Assembly (NCBI GenBank): GCA_935421135.1
Contig: OW285192.1
Location: 8,267,501 to 8,331,500, forward strand
Length of the DNA: 64,000 nt
Source of the DNA: Bugulina stolonifera
Lineage: Eukaryota; Bryozoa; Gymnolaemata; Cheilostomatida; Bugulidae
Reading direction: 5' to 3'
Made by a program: the position numbers and the translations under genes. Below the pieces are notes generated by a model. It ran no database searches and was not told the origin of the DNA. It worked only from the letters and a program-made list of their open reading frames with translations. Numbering within the stretch: the first letter of the stretch is position 1; every line of letters starts with the position of its first letter. Positions 280 to 25,865 of this stretch are shown piece after piece.

Positions 280-285
280 AGCATA
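280..285. repeat. Left target-site duplication of element 1 (AGCATA)
   Basis: This 6-bp sequence is repeated exactly at 9988-9993, directly outside the two termini of element 1. The matching position in the uninterrupted paralogous intron (about 30596-30601) reads AACATA. Confidence 0.85.
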
Positions 286-673
286 AGTAGTATAGTCAGT
301 GCACTTCTACACAGACACGCACTCATTGACCCCTGTTTTCAACCAATCACAAGCCGGTATTTCCGATTTCAACCAATCACAGAAGAGCACAAAAATTTTG
401 CACACGACCTTGCCAAGGTCACCCCAAAATCCCCCCTTCTGATTGGTCGAAAAAACATTTGCACACTTGACCCCGAACCCGGCCACGACCCCTTCCCTCC
501 CTCCTTCCCGCCCCCTCCCCCGCCTCCCACTCCTCCCCCGCTCCCCGCCACCGCCCTCGTCCCGTCCGCGCCACCGCCGTCGCCGCCGCCGCCACCGCCG
601 CCCTCACAGCCGCCGTCGCCGCCGCCACCACCGCCCTCACCACCGCCGCCGCCACCGCCGCCACCACCGCCGC

Positions 674-704
<31 letters not shown>

Positions 705-990
705 ACCGCCGCCGCCGCCGCCACCGCCGCCGCCGCCATCACCGTCATCACCGCCACCCCTCCTCCGCCGCCGCCCACCCTCCCCACCCCGCAACCCCCA
801 CTCACCCGAACGACCGATCGTTTGAGGCGGTCAAGCCGCGTCCGCCCACGTTGCGTGCGGCGCCGACCGTACACGTGGAGGCGACGCCGGTGCCCCGTAT
901 CCACCGGGCCAAGCGACTAGGCAGCGGCCCGCCGCTTCTCCCGAGCCCTCCACTCGAAAAGCTTGTGATCTAAACGAGCGAATTCGGCTG
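286..990. repeat. Left terminal inverted repeat of element 1
   Basis: Reverse complement of about 9285-9987. The outer 200 bases hold three CCAAT boxes (two in AACCAATCAC, one inverted as ATTGG). The middle is a long CCG/CCA triplet run with C-rich tracts. The inner part is unique and ends near the AAGCTTGTGATC stretch. The long poly-Gly, poly-Ala and Arg/His open frames in all phases are by-products of the GC-rich triplets and I do not regard them as genes. Confidence 0.9.
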
Positions 991-1084
991 CGCTTCTTCG
1001 CATTGTTAATAAAGAAATGTGTAAAGTCTTGGCTATAAATACACTGATGGGAAAAAGGGTTGGTTCTATAATATACATTGTATT

Positions 1085-1415
1085 GACAACAAAGAACCGT
1101 GTGCATGTGTTAAGTCAGCATATATAATGCATTAAATAAACTTTCCGCAATGGTGACAATAGAATGAATAAAAGATTGTGTACACGTGTTAAAACACAAT
1201 TGAAAGAATAAAAGACACATATTTAAAAGAGTATGTCATATCTGTTATTAGCAAGAAAGTCTGTGTGCATGTGTTAAGACAGTGTATATTATACATTAGA
1301 TAAACTTTTCACAATAGTAGCAATAGAATAAATAAAAGGTTGTGTGCATGTGTTAAGTCAGCATTATGTAATATATTAAATAAACTTCACAATAGTAGCA
1401 ATAGAATAAATAAAA
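1085..1415. repeat. Subterminal repeats, left side of element 1
   Basis: Imperfect units of roughly 80-140 bp containing TGTGTGCATGTGTTAAGTCA followed by an AT-rich part that ends in AATAGAATAAATAAAAG. The same units, inverted, occupy about 8290-9230, and related arrays lie in both arms of element 2. No coding capacity is apparent. Confidence 0.75.
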
Positions 1416-1433
1416 GAGGGGTTTAGGTACTTA

Positions 1434-2878
1434 TTACTCATCTTCATCAGAAGTCGTAGGAGCTATAATGTTTACGACTTCGGTCTCAGCATACTCTAAT
1501 TGATATGCTCCAGCTCCAAACTCTTGACACAGTCTTACCTACAAGATGATTTTAGTTTTTTACTCAGACGAATATCACTCAAGGTGGACAAAGCAAGAAA
1601 TCTATACTTCTTTATGTTGTTGGTCCCTTACCATATCTGCTGATTTGTAGAGGTGAGCTAGTTGTTGAGGAGTTTCACTTTTGTAGTTACGAACTTCAGA
1701 ATCAGCTCCCAATCTTAGACATGTATGTAGACATTCGTAGTCTTCATTCTCTATGGCAATGTGAGATGGGGCGTATCCATCTCCCATTCGCTATAATATC
1801 AAACAAGAGAATAGAATTAAACTCCCCATCTAACTTATCAATTCAATCTACTCTACTTTTATTCCACTGTAATGTATTCACTTACCCTCATATCTAAGTC
1901 AGCCCGAGTATTTTTTTTTAGTACTTTTAGTGCCTCTCTATGCTTGCTGCTATGCGCTGTTTCAACAATGAGGTGGACTACACTCCTTCCATCATGATTG
2001 TAGCTCTGTACATTGTCTTGGGGAAGTGATTTGTAAGGAACTCTGAAGTATGGATGCTTTACTTCTGCTCTGGTCAAACTTGTGGTTAGAGCATGAATAA
2101 CCTTAGCTCTACCCAGAAGTGCAGCAATGTGAAGGGGGGTGTCACCTTCCAAATAAACATTAGCAATATAGATAAGTACCGAATTGTTACAAGTTTTGCA
2201 ACACTATATTTTTTAACAAGCAATGCATGCAAACATTGGTGCTATAAAACACTAACCCCAAGCATCGGCTATTGCTCCATCCGCTCCCCTTGTGATGATG
2301 AGGCGAATTAGTGAATCCGAACAATAAGACTGTACAGTTAGGTGAAGTAACGTCTGCCGATTCGCATTCTTTGTATTCAGTTGTTTGTGACTCCTCGCAA
2401 CAAATACCGCGAGTGCAATGGCTCTCTCATCTCTATCTCGGGCTGCTTCTAGTACCTCACTACATCATTTAGCATGATATTTGTTTTTCACATAGTTGAG
2501 AGGTAGTTATATGGGAAATTTGTCTATCATATTTTATTTTGATCATAAAAGACAATACGAAAAAAAAAAAAAAAAATAGATGGAAGTATGTATAACTTAC
2601 AACTCTTCATCCTTTCCATCTTGTTCCCAAAAGATAGAACGAATTTCTTCTAGTAACTGTGTGCTAAGCTTATTACGAATATCGGTTAAAGGATCCCATT
2701 TCTGCCAGTCTAGAGGTAAGCTTTTTTGGAGAAAGAGCTCAGACACCCCCTCAAATAAGTCTTTATTCTCATACTTGCTTTGTTCTGTACATCTTTCCAC
2801 TGTTACCTTCATCAGCTCTTGGTTTATAGGAGTCATTAGCTTGTTGCTATACTCGCTTGATCCATATCCACTTTCCAT
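1434..2878 (-). CDS. IkB-like ankyrin-repeat protein, cargo of element 1 (five exons)
   Basis: Exons 2601-2878, 2257-2459, 1886-2145, 1632-1790 and 1434-1538 (minus strand) join in frame at GT-AG sites to give 334 aa. Residues 2-7 read ESGYGS, matching the IkB phosphodegron DSGxxS except for Glu in place of Asp. From about residue 93 there are five to six ankyrin repeats, with clear cores such as TLLHLT, GDTPLHIAALLG, VVHLIVETA and APSHIAIEN. The C-terminus is acidic and ends in DEDE, like the PEST tail of IkB proteins. Length and order fit the IkB family, which holds NF-kB/Rel dimers in the cytoplasm until IKK phosphorylation and proteasomal decay. A TATA-like CTATATAAAGAG (about 2964-2976) lies upstream. 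That it controls host Rel factors is inference; it could be another short ankyrin protein. No disabling change is seen. Confidence 0.8.
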
Positions 2879-2963
2879 GTTATTTGTGTGCTAACCTTCT
2901 TTAATTTCTATTAAGAACAGACTGGAGCTAGAAAGAGTTAACTAAACTACTGTTTTCACCTCT

Positions 2964-2976
2964 CTTTATATAGTGA
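2964..2976 (-). promoter_or_regulatory. TATA-like promoter of the IkB-like gene
   Basis: On the minus strand CTATATAAAGAG lies about 90 bases before the ATG at 2878. It faces away from the central minisatellite, back to back with the promoter of the plus-strand cargo gene. Confidence 0.5.
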
Positions 2977-3019
2977 ATAAAAAGATACAAATAAAGCTGA
3001 TTGGCTAACAGCATATACA

Positions 3020-4210
3020 TTGGAGCGCATTGGAAACACATCAGAGTGCATCGAATCACATCGGGAAAGATCAAAAACACATAGGGAAACATCGAAACAC
3101 ATCGGGAAAGGTCGAAAACACATCGGGGGAGGTCGAAAACACATCGGGACACATCGAATCACATCGGGGGAGGTCGAAAACACATCGGGACACATCGAAT
3201 CACATCGGGGGAGGTCGAAAACACATCGGGACACATCGAATCACATCGGGGGAGGTCGAAAACACATCGAATCACATCGGGGGAGGTCGAAATCACATTG
3301 AATCACATCGGGGGAGGTCGAAAACACATCGGGGGTGGTCGAAAACACATCGGGACACATCGAATCACATCGGGGGAGGTCGAAAACACATCGAATCACA
3401 TCGGGGGAGGTCGGAAACACATCGAATCACATCGGGGGAGGTCGAAAACACATCGAATCACATCGGGGGAGGTCGAAAACACATCGAATCACATCGGGGG
3501 AGGTCGAAAACACATCGAATCACATCGGGGGAAGTCGAAAACACATCGGGGGAGGTCGGAAACACATCGGGACACATCGAATCACATCGGGGGAGGTCGA
3601 AAACACATCGGGACACATCGAATCACATCGGGGGAGGTCGAAAACACATCGAATCACATCGGGGGAGGTCGAAAACACATCGAATCACATCGGGGGAGGT
3701 CGAAAACACATCGAATCACATCGGGGGAGGTCGAAAACACATCGAATCACATCGGGGGAGGTCGAAAACACATCGAATCACATCGGGGGAGGTCGAAAAC
3801 ACATCGAATCACATCGGGGGAGGTCGAAAACACATCGGGGGAGGTCGAAAACACATCGGGGGAGGTCGAAAACACATCGGGGAGGTCGAAAACACATCGA
3901 GACACATCGAATCACATCGGGGGAGGTCGAAAACACATCGGGGGAGGTAAAAAACACATCGGGTTACATCGGGTTACATCGGGTCACATCGGGGAAGGTC
4001 GAAAACACATCGGGACACATCGAATCACATCGGGGGAGGTCGAAAACACATCGAGACACATCGAATCACATCGGGGGAGGTCGAAAACACATCGGGGAGG
4101 TAAAAAACACATCGGGTTACATCGGGTTACATCGGGTTACATCGGGTTACATCGGGTTACATCGGGTTACATCGGGTTACATCGGGTTACATCGAATCAC
4201 ATCGGGATGC
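3020..4210. repeat. Central minisatellite of element 1 (CATCGGG-based)
   Basis: About 1.2 kb of tandem units built from ACACATCGAATCACATCGGG and a GGGAGGTCGAAAAC spacer, closing with short TTACATCGGG units near 3960-4190. Frames remain open in several phases because the unit lacks stops; the repetitive His/Arg/Gly products are not credible genes. The heptamer CATCGGG also builds the central array of element 2, which suggests common descent. Confidence 0.9.
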
Positions 4211-4258
4211 AATAAATCAGACTAAAAAAAGCCAAATCACCTCTGATTGGACAGAGAT

Positions 4259-4270
4259 TTCCATAAAAGC
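4259..4270 (+). promoter_or_regulatory. Probable TATA-like promoter of the plus-strand cargo gene
   Basis: CCATAAAAGC lies about 110 bases before the first candidate start codon (4378-4380). It is the only TATA-like box between the minisatellite and the first splice donor. Confidence 0.4.
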
Positions 4271-4377
4271 AAGCGTGAGAGAGGATTTTTATCATTGCCA
4301 CTCAACCACCTAGTAAAGACTTGCAACTCTGTGGATATTTACTAATTTCTCTGAATAAACATCACTCAACAATTAAT

Positions 4378-7300
4378 ATGGTGAGTAAACTTATTTTAAT
4401 ATGTATTTTAGTATGAATTTACTCATTTGAGTTAACATTGGGACTAATTCTATTTTAGTAGTGATATAATACTCCCTTGGTATGACCAGAGCTTAGAAAC
4501 TTTGTAAGCTTATGTATTAAACTGTTTTGATTCTCAACATGAGAGCAAGTATGTAGAGATCTGATCTGTCTATACTACAATTTGTGTGACCGGAGCTTAG
4601 AAGCTTTATATGTGGTGAGATTTTTTTCAATATGAGTAGTTATACCACTAGTAGTGTAATAAGTATCAAAACAGTTTATTACCACTTGTACTGGCTATAC
4701 TAGTACATCCTAGCTATTTTAATATGTATTTTAATATGAACTTACTCATTTGAGTTAACATTGGGGCTAATTATATTTTAGTAGTGGTATAATTCTCCTT
4801 TGGTATGTCCAGGGCTTAGAAACTTTGTAAGCTTATATATTAAACTGTTTTGACTCTCAACATGAAAGCATGTGTGTAGAGATCTGCTCTGTCTATACTA
4901 CAATTAGTGTGACCAGAGCTTAGAAACTTTATAAGTGGTGAGATTTATTTTCAATATGAGTAGTTATACCACTAGTAGGGTAATAAGTATCAAAACAGTT
5001 TATTACCACTTGTACTGACTATACTTGTACATCCTAGCAAAGAAGTATATTATCAAGTGTAGCCTATACTCTACATCCAAGACTATACTGTACTAAAGTG
5101 GCCTATCACAATACTTGGGGTGGACTTGCTGCTAAAAAGATTAACTGGATAATTCTAATGAATAGGTCTGCACTAAAGTGATTTATTACACTACTTGGGA
5201 TGAACTTGTTGCTAAAAAGATTAACTGAATAATTCTAATAAATAGGTCTACACCAAAGTGATTTATTACACTACTTAGGATGAACTTGAAGCTAAAAAGA
5301 CTAACTGATTAATTCTAATAAATAGATCTGCACTAACACAAGAGTAATTTATCTCTCTGTTTGGGAGGAGCTTACCATCAGAAAGACTCAATTGGTTGAA
5401 AAACACATAAAAAGTAAGGGGTGGTATTTTTGGTTTTTTTTCTGTCTTATACTGATTATTCACTTCAAAATTAATTCTTGCTAACACATGTTCTGTTTAT
5501 CTGTTCTTGTTTCTATTCCCCAGTGACTATGGTGAGTTGGTGGTTTTATCCACACAGTTAAGGCTTTAGTATATATTATTACTTGTTATTTAACTTGCCT
5601 ATGCTATTCATTCTAAAAGTAGTTGTTATCAGTATTCTTATTCTCTTGCTCAATAACTATAGGGATTAGTATTTTTGTATACTTGACTTGTACACTACCA
5701 CTATGCTCATGTTTCCTATATATTTTTATTCATTCTTATTTTCTTTGTTTAGTAACTATGTTGCATTAGTAGTTCCGTTTACTTGACTTATGCTTTGGTA
5801 TATGTTTATTACTCTACATATACTTACAGGCTTCTACATCTAAATATCAAAGAAAGAAATATATAAGAAAAATTAAAACATCAAAAAAAGGTACGAAGTA
5901 TATGGTTACGTACGACTCGGAAGACAGAAGACGAATCTCGAGGAAAAGAATCCCATCTCCAGAAATGGTTAGTCTATTATCTTATTTGTTCACACATGCA
6001 TTACACCTTCAATCCACTATGGTGTTGGGTTTCTAAGATGTCAAAGGAGATTACTGACATTTCTGCAGAAGTACATGTTAGTTACACATAATGATGATGT
6101 ACTTTTTTATACTATAAGCCTCTTACCATGTCTAGAATGTCAAAAGAGACTACTTCCTTTTTAAAACCAGATGTTAATTAGTCATAGTATGATTTTCTCT
6201 AATTCTATAAGTCTCTTACCATGTCTAAGATGTTAAAGATTAGTGATATTCTTATTATAAGTATTGCACTTTCTTTCTTATGTATTATTTTTATCAATAA
6301 GACACTTTTTTTTTCTTTTCTTATGTGAAAAAATATAACATAAATTACAACTGGCTTTCTTATGTTGATGATGTATTTCTCTTTATGTGAGTAAATAGAC
6401 AGGCTTTAGTAGACTTGCTTAGTACTTAGAGTGCTAGTTTTTTCATCAAATTCTTCAAAAACCATATATTACAAATAACTATGTTAATGTAGTTTGTTAA
6501 TTAGTCTCTGCACATTTTATTTACATTATAGAATGAAAAAGAAACAGATTTAGGGGAAGAAGAGATTGGTTTATTTGAACAATGTGGGGGAGTAGATGGT
6601 TTCGAGATAGGTAAGAATGATTTAGTATCTATTTGTATATTTAGAATCTTTTTTTTTTTTTCTGATTTACAAGTAAGTCATATGTTCTCTCTCACTTATT
6701 CTTGTTATTTTCTTTCTTTTTTAGGACTCAGAGCAAAGTCGATATGTAAGGGGGGTCTAAGATTCTATGTCTTTGTTAGTGATGAGACAAAAAGAAGACT
6801 GGAGATGTCACTAACAAAGCCATTTGAATCGGATGACCCCTGTTTTTTATGCAATAAGAATGTTGGGCACCGACGAGGTGTCCACATTCAACAACATTTT
6901 TTGCTCCGAATCTGTTTTTGCTATCACATAACAGTAGATGATGAGGGGATGAATAGACACTACAACTTTCCATCTAATCATCATATTGATGGAAAGCCCT
7001 GTCACCGACACATCTCCTTCAACACACGCTTTCTAACAGATATCTATTCATTAAAAAAGACCATATCCTTTTTGCAAAGGGTCACTGGTCACTCTCCACC
7101 TTCCAAAATACTCATCCCCGCATACACTCCAACAACTGTTGATGGGGTAGTATACCCTCCCTTCTTTAAGGGGATGTCTACTACTCCATTCTCTTTAAAG
7201 TCTGGGGTGTGCTCTTCACAATTTCCTCTCCCTTCTCACCATCATTTTGATTCAGATGCTTCTTCCATCAGTAACTCTCTTACTAATGGAGACATTACCA

Positions 7301-8085
7301 TCTCTACTTCTTCTCTTACAACTACTACTATTACTACTACTCCTTCTACTACTTCTTTTCCTCCACTCTTTTCTTCACATTCACCCTCTCATTCTCCTGA
7401 AAGATCTGTAAAGTCTGGGGTGTGCTCTTCACAATTTCCTCTCCCTTCTCACCATCATTTTGATTCAGATGCTTCTTCCATCAGTAACTCTCTTACTAAT
7501 GGAGACATTACCACCTCTACTTCTTCTCTTACAACTACTACTATTACTACTACCATTACTACCACTCCTTCTACTGCTTCTTTTCCCCCACTCTTTTCTT
7601 CACATTCACCCTCTCATTCTCCTGAAAGATCTGATGATACAGTTACCACTGTTTCGATACCTACTTCTACTCCCACCTCTTCACCTGCTCCACTCTTTTT
7701 CTTAGATTCACCCTCTTTTTCTCTTGGAAGGTCTAATAATTCAATTACTAGTCTTTCAATACCTACTTTTATTACTACTTCTACTACTACCACTTCTTCC
7801 TTTTCTTTAGCTTCACCCTCTCTTTCTTTTGGAAGAGAGCTACTTAGCTTGCAATCTCCTTCTTGTTCGTCTGAACTCAATCTTAATACCCCCACCACTA
7901 TTACCCCCATAGAAGAGGAGACTGTCAGTGAACTAGTTGATCGAAGCAGACTCCCCCCATCTTTTTTCTCTGGAGCAGTTGAGTATTACCGCTCTGCCAT
8001 TTTTCATCTCAAGAAGAATGGGTATCACAGAGAGGTAATAGCACAAGCTGAAGCTTACCTTCGAGTCAGTGAAGAAAAGCTCTAA
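4378..8085 (+). CDS. Unrecognised Cys/His and Ser/Thr-rich protein, cargo of element 1
   Basis: Candidate exons: an ATG directly before a GT donor (4378-4380), then 5830-5967, 6532-6610 and 6725-8085. They join in frame at GT-AG sites to about 526 aa. A second ATG in the same position relative to a donor lies at 5527-5529. The N-terminus is strongly basic (YQRKKYIRKIKTSKK), a likely nuclear localisation signal. An acidic stretch follows, then a region with CFLC, CFCYH and HIDGKPCHRH that could bind zinc. A long Ser/Thr/Pro-rich linker follows and contains a tandem duplication of about 70 residues (7190-7405 and 7410-7635). The conserved-looking C-terminus is predicted helical (HLKKNGYHREVIAQAEAYL). 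I know no matching family. The gene diverges from the IkB-like gene across the minisatellite. The start is uncertain; the last exon is firm. Confidence 0.65.
4400..5030. repeat. Tandem duplication of about 310 bp in intron 1 of the plus-strand cargo gene
   Basis: The stretch after TTTGAGTTAACATTGGG at about 4430 recurs at about 4745 with small changes, up to the shared TACATCCTAGC at about 4700 and 5030. A further unit of about 70 bp, CACTAAAGTGATTTATTACA and following bases, recurs three to four times at 5095-5330. Noncoding. Confidence 0.75.
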
Positions 8086-8289
8086 TCATCTTTTCTTTAG
8101 TTTTTTTTCTTTTTTCTCCCACTCTCTTTCTCCCACTCTCTCTCTCTCTCTCTGTAGTGTCTCATTCCCTCTGCATTTACTTTTATGTGATAGCAAATCA
8201 GTGAGGATTTTTTTAAATTATTTTTTGAATTATTATATAATGGTATTCTAACACTTATACACATCCTTTTATACATTCTATTGCTACTT

Positions 8290-9230
8290 TTGTAAAAAGT
8301 TTATTTAATGTATTATATGTGCTGACTTAACACATGCACACAGCTGTCTCTTGCTATAATAGCTATGACATACTCCTTTACATATGTGTCTTTTATTCTT
8401 TCAATTGTGTTTAAATCATATTATAATGATATTTCAACATGTGTACACAATCTTTATTTATTCTATTGCTACTATTGTGAAAAGTTTATTTAATGTATTA
8501 TATATGCTGCCCTTAACACATGTACACAGACTTTTCTTGCTAACAATAGCTATGACATACTCCTTTACATATGTAGCTTTTTTATTCATTCTATTGCTAG
8601 TGTTGTAAAAAGTGTATTTAATGTATTACATAATGCTGACTTAACACATACACTCAATCTTTTATTTATTCTATTGCTACTATTGTAAAAAGTTTATTTA
8701 ATATATTACATAATGCTGACTTAACACATGCACACAACCTTTTATTTATTCTATTGCTACTATTGTGAAAAGTTTATCTAATGTATAATATACACTGTCT
8801 TAACACATGCACACAGACTTCCTTGCTAATAACAGATATGACATACTCTTTTAAATATGTGTCTTTTATTCTTTCAATTGTGTTTTAACACGTGTACACA
8901 ATCTTTTATTCATTCTATTGTCACCATTGTGAAAAGTTTATTTAATGCATTATATATGCTGACTTAACACATGCACATGGTTCTTTGTTGTCAATACAAT
9001 GTATATTATAGAAACAACCCTTCTTCCCATCAGTATATTTATAGCCAAGACTTTACACATTTCTTTGGAAAGTTTATTTAATGCATTATATATGCTGACT
9101 TAACACATGCACACGGTTCTTTGTTGTCAATACAATGTATATTATAGAACCAACCCTTCTTCCCATCAGTGTATTTATAGCCAAGACTTTACACATTTCT
9201 TTATTAACAATGCAATGCACATCATAAACC
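8290..9230. repeat. Subterminal repeats, right side of element 1
   Basis: Inverted relatives of the 1085-1415 units, with more copies. The last unit, holding the sequence around GGTTCTTTGTTGTCAATAC, is tandemly duplicated at about 8947-9071 and 9072-9200. They could be binding sites for the replication or transposition machinery, but the sequence does not show this. Confidence 0.75.
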
Positions 9231-9284
9231 AAGCCTTCCGTAGTACTTCTTCTTATCGCTAATGAGAGCTATAGGCGAAGAAGC

Positions 9285-9568
9285 GCAGCCGAATTCGCTC
9301 GTTTAGATCACAAGCTTTTCGAGTGGAGGGCTCGGGAGAAGCGGCGGGCCGCTGCCTAGTCGCTTGGCCCGGTGGATACGGGGCACCGGCGTCGCCTCCA
9401 CGTGTACGGTCGGCGCCGCACGCAACGTGGGCGGACGCGGCTTGACCGCCTCAAACGATCGGTCGTTCGGGTGAGTGGGGGTTGCGGGGTGGGGAGGGTG
9501 GGCGGCGGCGGAGGAGGGGTGGCGGTGATGACGGTGATGGCGGCGGCGGCGGTGGCGGCGGCAGCGGT

Positions 9569-9599
<31 letters not shown>

Positions 9600-9987
9600 G
9601 CGGCGGTGGTGGCGGCGGTGGCGGCGGCGGTGGTGAGGGCGGTGGTGGCGGCGGCGACGGCGGCTGTGAGGGCGGCGGTGGCGGCGGCGGCGACGGCGGT
9701 GGCGCGGACGGGACGAGGGCGGTGGCGGGGAGCGGGGGAGGAGTGGGAGGCGGGGGAGGGGGCGGGAAGGAGGGAGGGAAGGGGTCGTGGCCGGGTTCGG
9801 GGTCAAGTGTGCAAATGTTTTTTCGACCAATCAGAAGGGGGGATTTTGGGGTGACCTTGGCAAGGTCGTGTGCAAAATTTTTGTGCTCTTCTGTGATTGG
9901 TTGAAATCGGAAATACCGGCTTGTGATTGGTTGAAAACAGGGGTCAATGAGTGCGTGTCTGTGTAGAAGTGCACTGACTATACTACT
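9285..9987. repeat. Right terminal inverted repeat of element 1
   Basis: Inverted copy of 286-990, with the same CCAAT boxes, a GGC/GGT triplet run and a G-tract region (about 9725-9790) that could form G-quadruplexes. It matches the repeats of element 2 (21007 to about 21735 and about 25122-25859) closely, which shows one family. Confidence 0.9.
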
Positions 9988-9993
9988 AGCATA
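9988..9993. repeat. Right target-site duplication of element 1 (AGCATA)
   Basis: Exact copy of 280-285 directly after the terminal CTATACTACT of element 1. Confidence 0.85.
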
Positions 9994-10679: not shown

Positions 10680-10795
10680 CTCGAGTCTCATTCCACTTCT
10701 ACAACTGAAGACGAGACTCAAGAAGTCTCATTCCACTTCTACAACTGAAGACGAGACTCAAGAAGTCTCAAGTCTCGTCTTGAGTTCCCTTGTCT
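10680..10795. repeat. Short tandem/inverted repeat in intron 2 of copy A
   Basis: Two direct copies of a unit of about 46 bp containing TCATTCCACTTCTACAACTG, followed by a partly inverted copy of its GACGAGACTCAAG part. It could be a small foldback element. Confidence 0.5.
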
Positions 10796-21000: not shown

Positions 21001-21006
21001 ATTGAG
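21001..21006. repeat. Left target-site duplication of element 2 (ATTGAG)
   Basis: Repeated exactly at 25860-25865. Copy B of the host gene has a single ATTGAG at the same place (about 33373-33378). Confidence 0.9.
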
Positions 21007-21735
21007 AGTAGTATAGTCAGTGCACTTCTAGACAGACACGCACTCATTGACCCCTGTTTTCAACCAATCACAAGCCGGTATTTCCGATTTCAACCAATCA
21101 CAGAAGAGCACAAAAATTTTGCACACGACCTTGCCAAGGTCACCCCAAAATCCCCCCTTCTGATTGGTCGAAAAAACATTTGCACACTTGACCCCGAACC
21201 CGGCCACGACCCCTTCCCTCCCTCCTTCCCGCCCTCCTCCCCTCCCCCTCCCCCACCTCCCACTCCTCCCCCACTCCCCGCCACCGCCCTCGTCCCGTCC
21301 GCGCCACCGCCGCCGCCGCCACCACCGCCCTCACCACCGCCACCGCCGCCGCCACCACCGCCCTCACCACCGCCGCCGCCACCGCCGCCACCACCGCCAC
21401 CGCCGCCACCGCCGCCACCGCCGCCACCACCACCGCCACCGCCGCCGCCACCGCCGCCGCCGCCATCACCGTCATCACCGCCACCCCTCCTCCACCGCCG
21501 CCCACCCTCCCCCCCGCAACCCCCACTCACCCGAACGACCGATCGTTTGAGGCGGTCAAGCCGCGTCCGCCCACGTTGCGTGCGGCGCCGACCGTACACG
21601 TGGAGGCGACGCCGGTGCCCCGTATCCACCGGGCCAAGCGACTAGGCAGCGGCCCGCCGCTTCTCCCGCGCCCCCCACTCGAAAAGCTTGTGATCTAAAC
21701 GAGCGAATTCGGCTGCGCTTCGCCTACAGCTCTCA
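21007..21735. repeat. Left terminal inverted repeat of element 2
   Basis: About 730 bp, closely matching 286-990 of element 1 and the inverted right end about 25122-25859. It has the same CCAAT boxes and a CCG/CCA triplet run. Long open frames here are low-complexity artefacts. Confidence 0.9.
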
Positions 21736-21874
21736 TTAGCGATAAGAAGTGGTTTCCTCTTCTGATAAATTTTTATCTTTTCGGATGAGCGCATCTATAC
21801 TACGAGCACTCAGGGCCATGTAAGCGCTATCCGTGTCCATTTCTACGTACTCAAACTCCTCTCTGCTGACGAAT
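21736..21874 (-). pseudogene. Last exon of a type B DNA polymerase (left arm remnant)
   Basis: Inverted copy of 24983-25121, of the same length (139 bp), with the same acceptor, the same DTDS motif and the same stop. It is transcribed toward the left terminus, mirror-image to the right copy. The near identity of the two arms suggests either recent palindrome formation or continued arm-to-arm conversion. Confidence 0.78.
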
Positions 21875-21959
21875 CTGTGAAAATAAAATGGACGGGTTGG
21901 AGGGTGCTGACACCGAAGAATAAGTAGAGAAGGATTTGATAAAATCTTTGTGTAGTCTA

Positions 21960-22600
21960 GTTCTACTCATCTATCCATATGTGTACACATGTTAAAATAC
22001 CTTTATATAATAGTTCAAACACAATTGAATGAATAAAGGACACATATCTAAAGGAGTATGTCATAGCTATTATTAGCAAGAAAAGACTGTGTGCATGTAT
22101 TAAGTCAGCATACATAATACATTAAATAAGCTTTTCACAATAGTAGCAATAGAATAAATAAAAGGTTGTGTGCATGTGTTAAGTCAGCATTATGTAATTC
22201 ATTAAATAAACTTTTCACAATAGTAGCAATAGAATAAATAAAAGATTGTGTACACATGTTGAAATACCTTTATATAATAGATTAAATAAGCTTTTCACAT
22301 ACCTATTATTAGCAAGGAAAGGTTGTGTGCATGTGTTAAGTCAGCATATATAATAGATTAAATAAGCTTTTCACAATAGTAGCAATAGAATAAATAAAAG
22401 GTTGTGTGCATGTGTTAAGTCAGCATTATGTAATTCATTAAATAAACTTTTCACAATAGTAGCAATAGAATAAATAAAAGATTGTGTACACATGTTAAAA
22501 TACCTTTATATAATAATTTAAACACAATTGAAAGAATAGGCTGTGTGCATGTGTTAAGTCAGCATATATAATAGATTAAATAAGCTTTTCAATAGTAGGT
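21960..22600. repeat. Subterminal repeats, left arm of element 2
   Basis: About six imperfect units containing TGTGTGCATGTGTTAAGTCA and AATAGTAGCAATAGAATAAA. The same family as 1085-1415; inverted at 24270-24900. Confidence 0.8.
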
Positions 22601-22734
22601 AGGTGTCACTGTTTTAGTCTCCCTATAATAAATATAAAGTAGCAGGGTGTAAGTAATTTTTTAGCTTGATAGCATTATATACAATAAACACTTCACAATT
22701 GCTGCCAATTACCCTATTTAGCACTAACCTTATG

Positions 22735-22860
22735 TTCTACTTGTTGAAATCTCTGATCAGGTGCTGACTAGTAGGTAGCTGTCTCTGTTTTAGTCTCACT
22801 CTGTTGACTAGAGGCTGATTGTACATACTGCTAGAGTGAGAAACTCATACCTTAAATAGT
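22735..22860 (-). promoter_or_regulatory. Promoter and noncoding first exon, left arm of element 2
   Basis: Mirror image of 23996-24128. TATTTAAGG lies on the minus strand at about 22851-22859 and faces the left polymerase remnant. Confidence 0.45.
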
Positions 22861-22904
22861 AGTATTCAGTAGGCGGAGTCTAACCATTTCCCCACCCTTT
22901 GCAA

Positions 22905-23950
22905 TACCACCCCGATGCGTCCCGATGTGAATCCGAAGCCTCCCGATGCACCCCGATGTGAATCCGAAGCCTCCCGATGCACCCCGATGCGAATCCGAAG
23001 CCTCCCGATGCACCCCGATGTGAATCCGAAGCCTCCCGATGCACCCCGATGCGAATTCGAAGCCTCCCGATGCACCCCGATGTGAATCCGAAGCCTCCCG
23101 ATGCACCCCAATGCTACTCCGAAGCCTCCCGATGCACCCCGATGTGAATCCGAAGCCTCCCGATGCACCCCGATGTGAATCCGAAGCCTCCCGATGCACC
23201 CCGATGCGAATCCGAAGCCTCCCGATGCACCCCGATGTGAATCCGAAGCCTCCCGATGCACCCCGATGTGAATCCGAAGCCTCCCGATGCACCCCGATGT
23301 GAATCCGAAGCCTCCCGATGCACCCCGATGCGAATCCGAAGCCTCCCGATGCACCCCGATGTGAATCCGAAGCCTCCCGATGCACCCCAATGCGACTCCG
23401 AAGCCTCCCGATGCACCCCGATGTGAATCCGAAGCCTCCCGATGCACCCCGATGTGAATCCGAAGCCTCCCGATGCACCCCGATGCGAATCCGAAGCCTC
23501 CCGATGCACCCCGATGTGAATCCGAAGCCTCCCGATGCACCCCGATGCGAATCCGAAGCCTCCCGATGCACCCCGATGTGAATCCGAAGCCTCCCGATGA
23601 ATCCCGATGCGTCCCGATGTGCCCGATGTGTCAAATCACACCGGGGTGCATCGGGTTACATCGGGAGGCTTCGGATTCACATCGGGGTGCATCGGGAGGC
23701 TTCGGATTCGCATCGGGGTGCATCGGGAGGCTTCGGATTCGCATCGGGGTGCATCGGGAGGCTTCGGATTCACATCGGGAGGCTTCGGATTCGCATCGGG
23801 GTGCATCGGGAGGCTTCGGATTCACATCGGGAGGCTTCGGATTCGCATCGGGGTGCATCGGGAGGCTTCGGATTCACATCGGGAGGCTTCGGATTCGCAT
23901 CGGGGTGCATCGGGAGGCTTCGGATTCACATCGGGACGCATCGGGGTGGT
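22905..23950. repeat. Central inverted minisatellite of element 2
   Basis: The left block (22905-23610) repeats a 31-bp unit with CCTCCCGATGCACCCCGATG about 23 times. The right block (23640-23950) carries the inverted unit about ten times, some shortened. The turning point is near 23610-23640. Open frames in several phases encode only repeats rich in His, Arg, Gly and Ser and are not supported as genes. The unit shares CATCGGG and GAGG with the element 1 minisatellite. Confidence 0.9.
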
Positions 23951-23995
23951 ATTGCAAAGGGTGGGGAAATGGTTAGACTCCGCCTACTGAATACT

Positions 23996-24128
23996 ACTAT
24001 TTAAGGTATGAGTTTCTCACTCTAGCAGTATGTACAATCAGCCTCTAGTCAACAGAGTGAGACTAAAACAGAGACAGCTACCTACTAGTCAGCACCTGAT
24101 CAGAGATTCTCAACAAGTAGAACATAAG
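23996..24128 (+). promoter_or_regulatory. Promoter and noncoding first exon, right arm of element 2
   Basis: TATTTAAGG (about 23998-24006) is followed by a transcript-like leader that ends at a donor AACATAAG/GTTAGT (24128/24129). The polymerase-remnant acceptor at 24982 lies downstream on the same strand. Confidence 0.45.
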
Positions 24129-24269
24129 GTTAGTGCTAAATAGGGTAATTGGCAGCAATTGTGAAGTGTTTATTGTATATAATGCTATCAAGCTAAAAAA
24201 TTACTTACACCCTGCTACTTTATATTTATTATAGGGAGACTAAAACAGTGACACCTACCTACTATTGAA

Positions 24270-24900
24270 AAGCTTATTTAATCTATTATATATGCTGACT
24301 TAACACATGCACACAGCCTATTCTTTCAATTGTGTTTAAATTATTATATAAAGGTATTTTAACATGTGTACACAATCTTTTATTTATTCTATTGCTACTA
24401 TTGTGAAAAGTTTATTTAATGAATTACATAATGCTGACTTAACACATGCACACAACCTTTTATTTATTCTATTGCTACTATTGTGAAAAGCTTATTTAAT
24501 CTATTATATATGCTGACTTAACACATGCACACAACCTTTTCTTGCTAATAATAGGTATGTGAAAAGCTTATTTAATCTATTATATAAAGGTATTTCAACA
24601 TGTGTACACAATCTTTTATTTATTCTATTGCTACTATTGTGAAAAGTTTATTTAATGAATTACATAATGCTGACTTAACACATGCACACAACCTTTTATT
24701 TATTCTATTGCTACTATTGTGAAAAGCTTATTTAATGTATTATGTATGCTGACTTAATACATGCACACAGTCTTTTCTTGCTAATAATAGCTATGACATA
24801 CTCCTTTAGATATGTGTCCTTTATTCATTCAATTGTGTTTGAACTATTATATAAAGGTATTTTAACATGTGTACACATATGGATAGATGAGTAGAACTAG
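24270..24900. repeat. Subterminal repeats, right arm of element 2
   Basis: Inverted counterpart of 21960-22600. Confidence 0.8.
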
Positions 24901-24982
24901 ACTACACAAAGATTTTATCAAATCCTTCTCTACTTATTCTTCGGTGTCAGCACCCTCCAACCCGTCCATTTTATTTTCACAG

Positions 24983-25121
24983 ATTCGTCAGCAGAGAGGA
25001 GTTTGAGTACGTAGAAATGGACACGGATAGCGCTTACATGGCCCTGAGTGCTCGTAGTATAGATGCGCTCATCCGAAAAGATAAAAATTTATCAGAAGAG
25101 GAAACCACTTCTTATCGCTAA
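24983..25121 (+). pseudogene. Last exon of a type B DNA polymerase (right arm remnant)
   Basis: A clear acceptor (TTTTATTTTCACAG) precedes an open stretch of 45 codons ending in TAA at 25119-25121. It contains EYVEMDTDSAYMAL. The DTDS with preceding aromatic and hydrophobic residues is motif C of family B DNA polymerases, which in Polintons is the protein-primed polymerase. The two Asp residues bind the catalytic metal ions. The exonuclease, TPR and motif A/B parts are absent, so this is a terminal exon left behind by internal deletion. Upstream, a promoter-like region (about 23998) and a donor at about 24128 could still splice to it. Identification from motif C alone is strong but not absolute. 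Confidence 0.78.
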
Positions 25122-25859
25122 TGAGAGCTGTAGGCGAAGCGCAGCCGAATTCGCTCGTTTAGATCACAAGCTTTTCGAGTGGGGGGCGCGGGAGAAGCGG
25201 CGGGCCGCTGCCTAGTCGCTTGGCTCGGTGGATACGGGGCACCGGCGTCGCCTCCACGTGTACGGTCGGCGCCGCACGCAACGTGGGCGGACGCGGCTTG
25301 ACCGCCTCAAACGATCGGTCGTTCGGGTGAGTGGGGGTTGCGGGGGGGAGGGTGGGCGGCGGTGGAGGAGGGGTGGCGGTGATGACGGTGATGGCAGCGG
25401 CGGCGGTGGCGGCGGCGGTGGCGGTGGTGGTGGCGGCGGTGGCGGTGGTGGTGGCGGCGGTGGCGGTGGTGGCGGCGGCGGCGGTGGTGAGGGCGGTGGT
25501 GGCGGCGGCGGTGGCGGTGGTGAGGGCGGTGGTGGCGGCGGTGGCGGCGGCGGCGGCGGTGGCGCGGACGGGACGAGGGCGGTGGCGGGGAGTGGGGGAG
25601 GAGTGGGAGGTGGGGGAGGGGGAGGGGAGGAGGGCGGGAAGGAGGGAGGGAAGGGGTCGTGGCCGGGTTCGGGGTCAAGTGTGCAAATGTTTTTTCGACC
25701 AATCAGAAGGGGGGATTTTGGGGTGACCTTGGCAAGGTCGTGTGCAAAATTTTTGTGCTCTTCTGTGATTGGTTGAAATCGGAAATACCGGCTTGTGATT
25801 GGTTGAAAACAGGGGTCAATGAGTGCGTGTCTGTCTAGAAGTGCACTGACTATACTACT
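25122..25859. repeat. Right terminal inverted repeat of element 2
   Basis: Inverted copy of 21007-21735. It begins directly after the stop codon of the polymerase remnant, so the parental polymerase gene ended where the terminal repeat starts. Confidence 0.9.
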
Positions 25860-25865
25860 ATTGAG
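25860..25865. repeat. Right target-site duplication of element 2 (ATTGAG)
   Basis: Exact match of 21001-21006, directly after the terminal CTATACTACT. Confidence 0.9.

What the first reader, a model, noticed from the sequence alone, without database searches (positions are those of the whole stretch)
286..9987. A Polinton-type element that has swapped its own genes for an IkB-like gene and an unknown nuclear-looking gene
Seen: long AG-starting inverted repeats, perfect 6-bp duplication AGCATA, two intact-looking spliced genes, and no recognisable Polinton core gene apart from a few polymerase codons at the inner edge of the right repeat. Known: Polintons have these termini and duplication length and normally carry polymerase, integrase and capsid genes. 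Inference: this is a cargo-carrying, helper-dependent form able to spread an immune-regulator-like gene. I know of no described family of this kind.
Basis: partly seen in the sequence, partly recalled or inferred. Interest (0 to 1): 0.92.

Follow-up and report, generated by a model that had tools for sequence, protein, structure and literature searches.

The report
Two-part integrating virus carrying host IkB
In the genome of a moss animal (bryozoan), hundreds of copies of a virus-like jumping element come in two matched kinds with nearly identical ends: one encodes a virus shell protein and the enzyme that inserts DNA, the other carries a relative of the host's own immune-brake gene (IkB) plus an unknown gene, which looks like a virus genome split over two separately inserted pieces.

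Summary
In detail: 286-9987 is a 9,702-bp insertion with long inverted repeats, a perfect 6-bp duplication and two spliced genes. The host is the bryozoan Bugulina stolonifera. About 350 elements share the exact 19-bp tip; 17 of 17 complete copies checked have perfect 6-bp duplications. Two main classes share these ends. Class A (mostly 10.0-11.2 kb; integrase marker, 199 hits) encodes a chromodomain integrase, a double-jelly-roll capsid protein and a packaging ATPase; no polymerase was found. Class B (the window; marker, 140 hits) carries an IkB/Cactus homologue closest to bryozoan IkB, apparently under purifying selection, plus an orphan gene. One separate locus looks like the host's own IkB. 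The outer 200 bp differ by 0-2 positions between A and B; one tip SNP splits two strains, each holding both classes. A/B chimeras and copy-back palindromes with intact ends and duplications show that A and B DNA met before insertion. Best reading: a bipartite Polinton-class system, B moved by A, polymerase supplied in trans, perhaps by the 4-5 PolB-bearing Polintons sharing the tip AGTAGTATAG. Whether B is an essential segment or a satellite is open.

The parts
280..285 (.). 6-bp target-site duplication, left copy (AGCATA)
   Evidence: sequence
286..1387 (+). left terminal inverted repeat; starts AGTAGTATAG; GC-rich GCC-repeat core about 510-800; 96% over the outer 500 bp, interrupted further in
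   Evidence: (I1, I2, I3, I5)
1434..1538 (-). IkB-like gene, exon 5 with stop codon
1632..1790 (-). IkB-like gene, exon 4 (ankyrin)
1886..2145 (-). IkB-like gene, exon 3 (ankyrin)
2257..2459 (-). IkB-like gene, exon 2 (ankyrin)
2601..2878 (-). IkB-like gene, exon 1; N-terminus MESGYGSSEY resembles an IkB phosphodegron (motif recalled)
3033..4206 (+). array of phased CATCGG motifs (10/21/31-bp periods; main unit 31 bp) between the two divergent genes; related arrays occur in class A and in gene-less copies
4378..4380 (+). orphan gene, exon 1 (start codon only)
5830..5967 (+). orphan gene, exon 2 (basic N-terminus)
6532..6610 (+). orphan gene, exon 3
6725..8085 (+). orphan gene, exon 4 (Cys/His-rich part, then Ser/Thr-rich repeats); no homologue found
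8690..9987 (-). right terminal inverted repeat, with an inner 136-bp tandem duplication at 8930-9201
9988..9993 (.). 6-bp target-site duplication, right copy (AGCATA)
21001..21006 (.). target-site duplication of the second element, left copy (ATTGAG)
21007..25859 (.). second, 4,853-bp near-palindromic copy of the same family (arms about 2.2 kb, 97%); no match to the class A or B genes
25860..25865 (.). target-site duplication of the second element, right copy (ATTGAG)

Best explanation
The window element (class B) is one half of a two-component Polinton-class mobile virus of Bugulina stolonifera. Class A elements supply integrase, capsid protein and packaging ATPase; class B elements carry an IkB/Cactus gene of animal origin and an orphan gene; both carry the same ends and related CATCGG arrays as likely cis signals. 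Shown: shared ends, shared strains, 6-bp duplications, A/B chimeras and copy-back palindromes that were formed before insertion, conserved IkB coding sequence, and no polymerase found in A or B. Inferred: linear extrachromosomal DNA of both kinds is made together in one cell by a protein-primed polymerase starting at the AGTAGT end; A's integrase inserts both; A's capsid may package both; the polymerase comes in trans, the 4-5 PolB-bearing Polintons with the tip AGTAGTATAG being the nearest candidates; the IkB protein holds back host NF-kB signalling during the productive phase.
For: Tip counts: exact 19-mer 347 forward + 359 reverse, about 350 elements, against 199 class A integrase markers and 140 class B markers. 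17 of 17 complete elements examined (two in the window, L009-L023) have perfect 6-bp duplications. Outer 200 bp: 42 rows, 40 distinct ends (L002 and L007 repeat ends of L014 and the window), compared with three references; 0-2 differences each, one SNP at tip position 25 splitting two strains; eight rows are class A (four from the palindromes L011 and L013, four assigned by me from marker or size). Of 21 paired C25 tips: 7 A, 6 B (one of them the chimera L010), 8 unclassified; of 26 paired G25 tips on contig 1: 15 A, 9 B, 2 unclassified. L010 and L015 are A/B chimeras, L011 and L013 copy-backs of one A end, with about 0-2 bp of homology at the four junctions. Class A genes: rve 2e-11 plus Chromo 1.2e-6, Pox_A32 1.4e-6; capsid model (P0001, 100% identical to the class A protein over 97% of the frame) pLDDT 85.5, matching iridovirus, PBCV-1, Sputnik and mavirus capsids. 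IkB between strains: dS 0.014-0.023, dN 0.001-0.004 in 6 comparisons; its exons differ by 0.60%, its introns by 0.90-1.59% in five copies. Synonymous divergence between strains is similar in A (24 differences over about 1,530 sites) and B. A PolB-bearing Polinton of about 15.1 kb with rve integrase, A32-type ATPase, tip AGTAGTATAG and TSD GATTAC lies in the same genome.
Against: No replication, packaging or expression data. PolB absence rests on Pfam scans of one class A copy (10 proteins), on open frames of four class A interiors, one of them interrupted, and on a genome-wide PolB search; a very divergent replicase or a low-copy third segment is not excluded. A and the PolB-bearing Polinton share only about 10 bp at the tip (one copy reads AGTAGTATAA), and their integrases are 27% identical, so the polymerase source is a guess. 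Shared strain SNPs could also come from end exchange between A and B. The IkB selection test rests on 3-5 synonymous against 1-3 replacement differences in related copies. The orphan gene shows little constraint (dN/dS about 0.5; its first intron is more conserved than its exons in three of five copies). A looser search (27-mer, up to 3 mismatches) gave 701/723 hits, about twice the exact count, which I could not explain.
Confidence: 0.66

Rival explanations
1. Class B is a satellite: a selfish derivative that kept the ends and array, picked up host DNA including IkB, and is moved by class A without helping it.
For: Gene-less copies with the same ends also moved (window 21007-25859, L022), so the ends and array suffice; the orphan gene is weakly constrained.
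Against: B is nearly as abundant as A (140 to 199), is present in both strains, and its IkB gene seems kept by purifying selection, which a passive passenger would not need.
Confidence: 0.27
2. A and B are both satellites of the PolB-bearing Polinton, in the way virophages depend on giant viruses: they use its polymerase and add their own capsid and integrase. This overlaps with the best explanation on the polymerase.
For: Shared tip AGTAGTATAG; nearly identical copies around PolB (98.3-100%); four of the five full-length PolB matches without a stop.
Against: No similarity between the repeats beyond the tip; four pairs and one single end against about 350 elements; two other PolB families are present too.
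Confidence: 0.3
3. Ordinary decay: B is an internal replacement product of A, multiplied once by chance, with IkB a neutral passenger.
For: Internal rearrangement occurs repeatedly in this family (L010, L011, L013, L015).
Against: Two diverged strains each hold B; IkB dN/dS about 0.06-0.28, though on few differences; 10 of 13 class B loci read have all five IkB exons complete and gapless without stops.
Confidence: 0.1
4. Assembly artefact or contamination.
For: None found.
Against: Long-read chromosome assembly with matching longest-scaffold length 36,811,656; mostly different duplications from site to site; IkB nearest to bryozoan IkB.
Confidence: 0.01

Closest known systems
Polinton/Maverick elements
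   Same: 6-bp duplications, AG ends, long inverted repeats (these three recalled as family traits), rve integrase, packaging ATPase, double-jelly-roll capsid (class A)
   Different: Class A is mostly 10-11 kb and no PolB was found in it; class B shows no Polinton gene and carries IkB; two classes share ends at similar copy number
Adintoviruses / meldviruses
   Same: rve integrase with a C-terminal chromodomain (trait read in passages of PMC11071296)
   Different: Adintoviruses encode PolB; none was found in class A
Bidna-like Vesanto virus
   Same: small DNA virus proposed to have many segments, many with similar inverted terminal repeats (passages of PMC8363768)
   Different: Segments of 3.3-5.8 kb, some with PolB homologues; no chromosomal insertion described in the passages read
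Polydnavirus vankyrins
   Same: IkB homologues carried on segments of a virus (abstract and passages of PMC3757122)
   Different: Vankyrins lack sequences for regulated degradation; here a degron-like N-terminus is present. Polydnaviruses are mutualists of wasps
Tlr elements of Tetrahymena
   Same: integrase and ATPase without PolB (passage of PMC4028283)
   Different: They encode a superfamily 1 helicase; the Pfam scan of class A shows none above cut-off

Membership tests
Polinton/Maverick (class B, the window element) | terminal inverted repeats with AG ends and 6-bp duplication (trait recalled) | tested here: met
Polinton/Maverick (class B, the window element) | own PolB, integrase, ATPase, protease genes (list in a passage of PMC4028283) | tested here: not met
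   none among the frames scanned; carries IkB and an orphan gene
Polinton/Maverick (class A) | rve integrase and packaging ATPase | tested here: met
   rve 2e-11, Pox_A32 1.4e-6
Polinton/Maverick (class A) | double-jelly-roll major capsid protein | tested here: met
   model pLDDT 85.5; Foldseek E about 1e-17 to iridovirus and PBCV-1 capsids, 1.6e-16 to Sputnik, 2e-15 to mavirus
Polinton/Maverick (class A) | cysteine protease | tested here: inconclusive
   Peptidase_C5 E 0.1, S273R protease E 0.049
Polinton/Maverick (class A) | protein-primed PolB | tested here: not met
   no PolB match among 10 class A proteins; 11 genome PolB matches in ten places: six places belong to the other Polinton family by sequence, and the four places on contig 1 lie outside listed A/B pairs
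Polinton/Maverick (class A) | size 15-20 kb (PMC4028283) | tested here: not met
   22 class A pairs: 19 between 10,045 and 11,207 bp, three of 12.1, 13.6 and 17.2 kb
Adintovirus (class A) | integrase with C-terminal chromodomain | tested here: met
   Chromo 1.2e-6 at residues 321-354
Adintovirus (class A) | PolB with OTU-like N-terminus | tested here: not met
   no PolB found in class A
IkB/Cactus (window gene) | ankyrin repeat domain most similar to animal IkB | tested here: met
   Ank_2 3e-12; best hits B. neritina cact 71% over 87%, W. subatra NF-kB inhibitor alpha-like 59% over 85%
IkB/Cactus (window gene) | DSGxxS phosphodegron (recalled) | tested here: inconclusive
   ESGYGS at residues 2-7, E in place of D; phosphorylation untested
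IkB/Cactus (window gene) | binds and retains Rel/NF-kB | not testable with these tools
   needs a binding assay
Bipartite virus | segments share ends and co-exist in each strain | tested here: met
Bipartite virus | both segments needed and packaged | not testable with these tools
   no particle or replication data

The most novel reading that the evidence does not exclude
A bipartite, chromosome-integrating animal DNA virus of the Polinton class: virion and integrase genes on segment A, a captured host NF-kB inhibitor and an orphan gene on segment B, each inserted separately, both replicated through common AGTAGT ends by a polymerase that neither segment encodes.
Probability: 0.45. Interest if true: 0.93.

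Novelty: new variant of a known kind. Interest (0 to 1): 0.86.

Why it matters
It would show that Polinton-class viruses can split their genome over separately inserting pieces, a state between a transposon, a virus and its satellite, and that an integrating element multiplied an NF-kB inhibitor gene to about 140 copies beside what looks like a separate host IkB locus. Nearly identical copies in one chromosome-level genome make open questions (do Polintons form particles, how do they replicate, who supplies the polymerase) directly testable in a common animal. I found no description of it in the listings of these searches of the held papers: Polinton with sponge, multipartite, adintovirus/integrase/capsid, nonautonomous/satellite, bryozoa, ankyrin/NF-kappaB and bracovirus, nor in the passages read in eight papers.

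Tried and rejected
Sponge as host: guessed first, rejected; IkB hits and the scaffold length give Bugulina stolonifera. Third segment with PolB: PolB places were located. One family is a Polinton with different repeats. The four PolB places on contig 1 do not lie between listed tip pairs. A third class as abundant as A and B is unlikely, as 199+140 nearly fills about 350, but a rare one is not excluded. Extra tips at 3 mismatches (701/723): four further patterns gave 344-359 forward and 351-363 reverse; unexplained. Orphan gene: no homologue, no PHROG, fold model unusable (pLDDT 33). Viral-contig scans with capsid and integrase queries: five scans, no confirmed relative. Capsid relatives: 40 proteins in the protein database, 33 of the 40 aligned for the fold. 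Solved-structure search by sequence with the capsid alignment gave nothing convincing. Left out of the strain table: three unpaired C25 tips, one T25 pair and one unpaired T25 tip; the marker lists used were the first 100 exact matches only, so contigs 9-11 and most of contig 8 could not be scored for class A.
Full report
OBSERVATION. The window lies at G000:C6:8267501-8331500. The element 286-9987 has inverted repeats whose outer 500 bp are 96% complementary and which continue in blocks to 1387/8690, and a perfect duplication AGCATA at 280-285 and 9988-9993. It holds two divergent spliced genes separated by a 1.2-kb array of phased CATCGG motifs. The claimed polymerase codons were not found.

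HOST. Contig 1 is 36,811,656 bases long, the length of the longest scaffold in the Bugulina stolonifera genome paper (passages of PMC10213821); contigs 2, 3 and 6-10 agree in size with chromosomes 2, 3 and 6-10 there. The best named relatives of the IkB-like protein are bryozoan.

FAMILY SIZE. The exact 19-bp tip occurs 347 times forward and 359 times reverse, in the listed part mostly as facing pairs. A 27-bp tip with up to 3 mismatches gave 701/723, an excess I could not resolve. Fifteen whole copies were fetched: 10 of class B (L009, L012, L014, L016-L021, L023; L018-L020 with internal differences), two A/B chimeras (L010, L015), two copy-back palindromes of class A (L011, L013) and one without class A or B genes (L022). 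They were picked for being under 10 kb, so these proportions are not genome-wide. All 15, the window element and the second window element have perfect 6-bp duplications (17 of 17).

CLASS A. Four interiors (L024, L025, L027, L028; L027 interrupted) show the same gene order where they overlap. From ten L028 frames: integrase with rve (2e-11) and chromodomain (1.2e-6), packaging ATPase (Pox_A32 1.4e-6), a weak C5-type protease (0.1), and the rest without Pfam matches above the curated cut-off. The capsid protein has 40 database relatives; the model of the 100% identical relative P0001 is a double jelly roll, the best solved matches being iridovirus and PBCV-1 capsids, then Sputnik and mavirus. 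Among predicted viral proteins the top hit by E-value is a Cotesia bracovirus protein (26% identity, TM-score only 0.37), with adomavirus, adintovirus and MELD-virus proteins further down. No polymerase was found. Names such as penton-like for the 256-aa protein are my recall. Between L024 (C25) and L028 (G25), nine of ten genes could be compared (one skipped for a gap): 24 synonymous differences over about 1,530 sites (0.016) and 13 replacements, 10 of these in the 195-aa and 451-aa proteins. L027 and L028, both G25, differ in the compared part of the capsid gene by 1 synonymous and 5 replacement changes, so constraint is not uniform.

CLASS B. The IkB-like protein has 334 residues, ankyrin repeats and the N-terminus MESGYGSSEY; the Bugula neritina protein is longer and carries DSGFMS further in. 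Over 317 core residues it is 67% identical to B. neritina and 57% to Watersipora subatra, which are 58% identical to each other. In the host genome the N-terminal 113 residues of the B. neritina protein match 145 places, all scored: one (C5:15180393-15180725) matches nearly the whole stretch (residues 3-113, 43%) and I take it as the host's own IkB; the other 144 match only from residue 64 or later and I take them as element copies, from the shape of the match, without fetching them. A search with the full protein scored 104 of 896 candidates; its listed matches, all at most 76% identical, did not include the contig 5 place, and part of the 253 matches was not listed. Ten of 13 class B loci with IkB exons have all five exons complete and gapless, without stops; L014 and L017 have a gap in exon 3 and L026 a partial exon 4. 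Between the two tip strains dS is 0.014-0.023 and dN 0.001-0.004 (six comparisons with the window, 3-5 synonymous and 1-3 replacement differences each, not independent). IkB exons differ by 0.60%, introns by 0.90-1.59% (five copies). The orphan gene has dS 0.013-0.016 and dN 0.0075 in three comparisons, and its first intron differs less than its exons in three of five copies, so constraint on it is weak or absent; in L018-L020 its third exon was not found at the threshold used.

WHAT TIES A AND B TOGETHER. The outer 200 bp were compared with three reference ends for 42 rows (40 distinct ends): each differs at 0-2 positions, and position 25 (C or G) defines two strains. Both strains contain both classes (C25 7 A, 6 B, 8 unclassified of 21; G25 on contig 1 15 A, 9 B, 2 unclassified of 26). 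The ten unclassified pairs are L011, L013, L015, L022 and six of 10.7-11.2 kb whose marker was outside or inexact in the lists. Outer repeats of the window (B) and of the C25 class-A-derived copies L011 and L013 are 98.9-99.4% identical over 708 bp, more than between window B and the G25 B copies L016-L021 and L023 (90-97%), although those B interiors are mostly 94-98% identical. So ends are shared within strains across classes. Chimeras with intact ends and duplications mean that A and B DNA were joined before insertion; the two chimera junctions and two palindrome junctions show about 0-2 bp of homology. One-end palindromes are what copy-back during end-initiated replication of linear DNA would give (inference).

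REPLICATION. The ends begin AGTAGT. Protein-primed systems use sliding back, or jumping back in adenovirus, to keep their ends (passages of PMC3480470; that adenovirus ends carry a repeated trinucleotide is recalled). PolB matches lie in ten places in three families. One family is a Polinton of about 15.1 kb with 653-bp repeats, TSD GATTAC and the same first ten bases as A and B in one copy, nine in another; the tip pattern finds four pairs and one single end. That it supplies the polymerase is inference.

COMPARISON WITH THE KNOWN. By membership, B fails the Polinton gene test and A fails on PolB and size; both meet the end structure. By working, the pair resembles a segmented virus such as Vesanto virus (passages of PMC8363768) with an IkB-carrying segment as in polydnaviruses (PMC3757122). 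PMC11071296 (passages) mentions adenovirus-like genomes lacking recognizable PolB and integrase; A has the integrase but no PolB was found.

VERDICT. A real, young-looking, high-copy two-class family. The bipartite reading is favoured over a satellite reading mainly by abundance, strain structure and IkB constraint; it is not proven. After re-checking I lowered the main confidence slightly (0.68 to 0.66) and raised the satellite rival (0.25 to 0.27), because the selection test rests on few differences.

Noticed in passing
window 21007-25859: A second element of the same family, almost palindromic, without class A or B genes, TSD ATTGAG; CATCGG-type arrays in its middle.
   Followed up: partly
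window 3033-4206; class A loci L024, L028; L022: Arrays with a 31-bp main unit built on CATCGG at about 10-bp phase in all 15 whole copies and both window elements; in class B one orientation, in L011, L013, L022, L024 and L028 two opposed halves. Possible packaging, replication or regulatory signal.
   Followed up: partly
G000:C1:22080281, C7:13185903 (L036, L037) and C4:2175281, C10:9729434 (L038, L039): Two further PolB families, with weak zinc-finger-like stretches upstream; flanks could not be fetched, so their element type is unknown.
   Followed up: partly
whole genome, tip 27-mer: About twice as many tips at up to 3 mismatches (701/723) as by exact or near-exact patterns (about 350/360); cause unknown.
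   Followed up: partly
L027 (about 7000-9700) and L020 (about 3850-4700): Other DNA inserted within family copies; in L027 the frames look hAT-transposase-like (recalled, not tested).
   Followed up: no
protein P0045 on an 8.5-kb contig: An IkB relative (46% identity) without the long N-terminus, from a short public contig; could be a segment B relative elsewhere. The contig was not looked up.
   Followed up: no
window 10684-10763: A perfect 40-bp tandem duplication outside the right end of the element.
   Followed up: no
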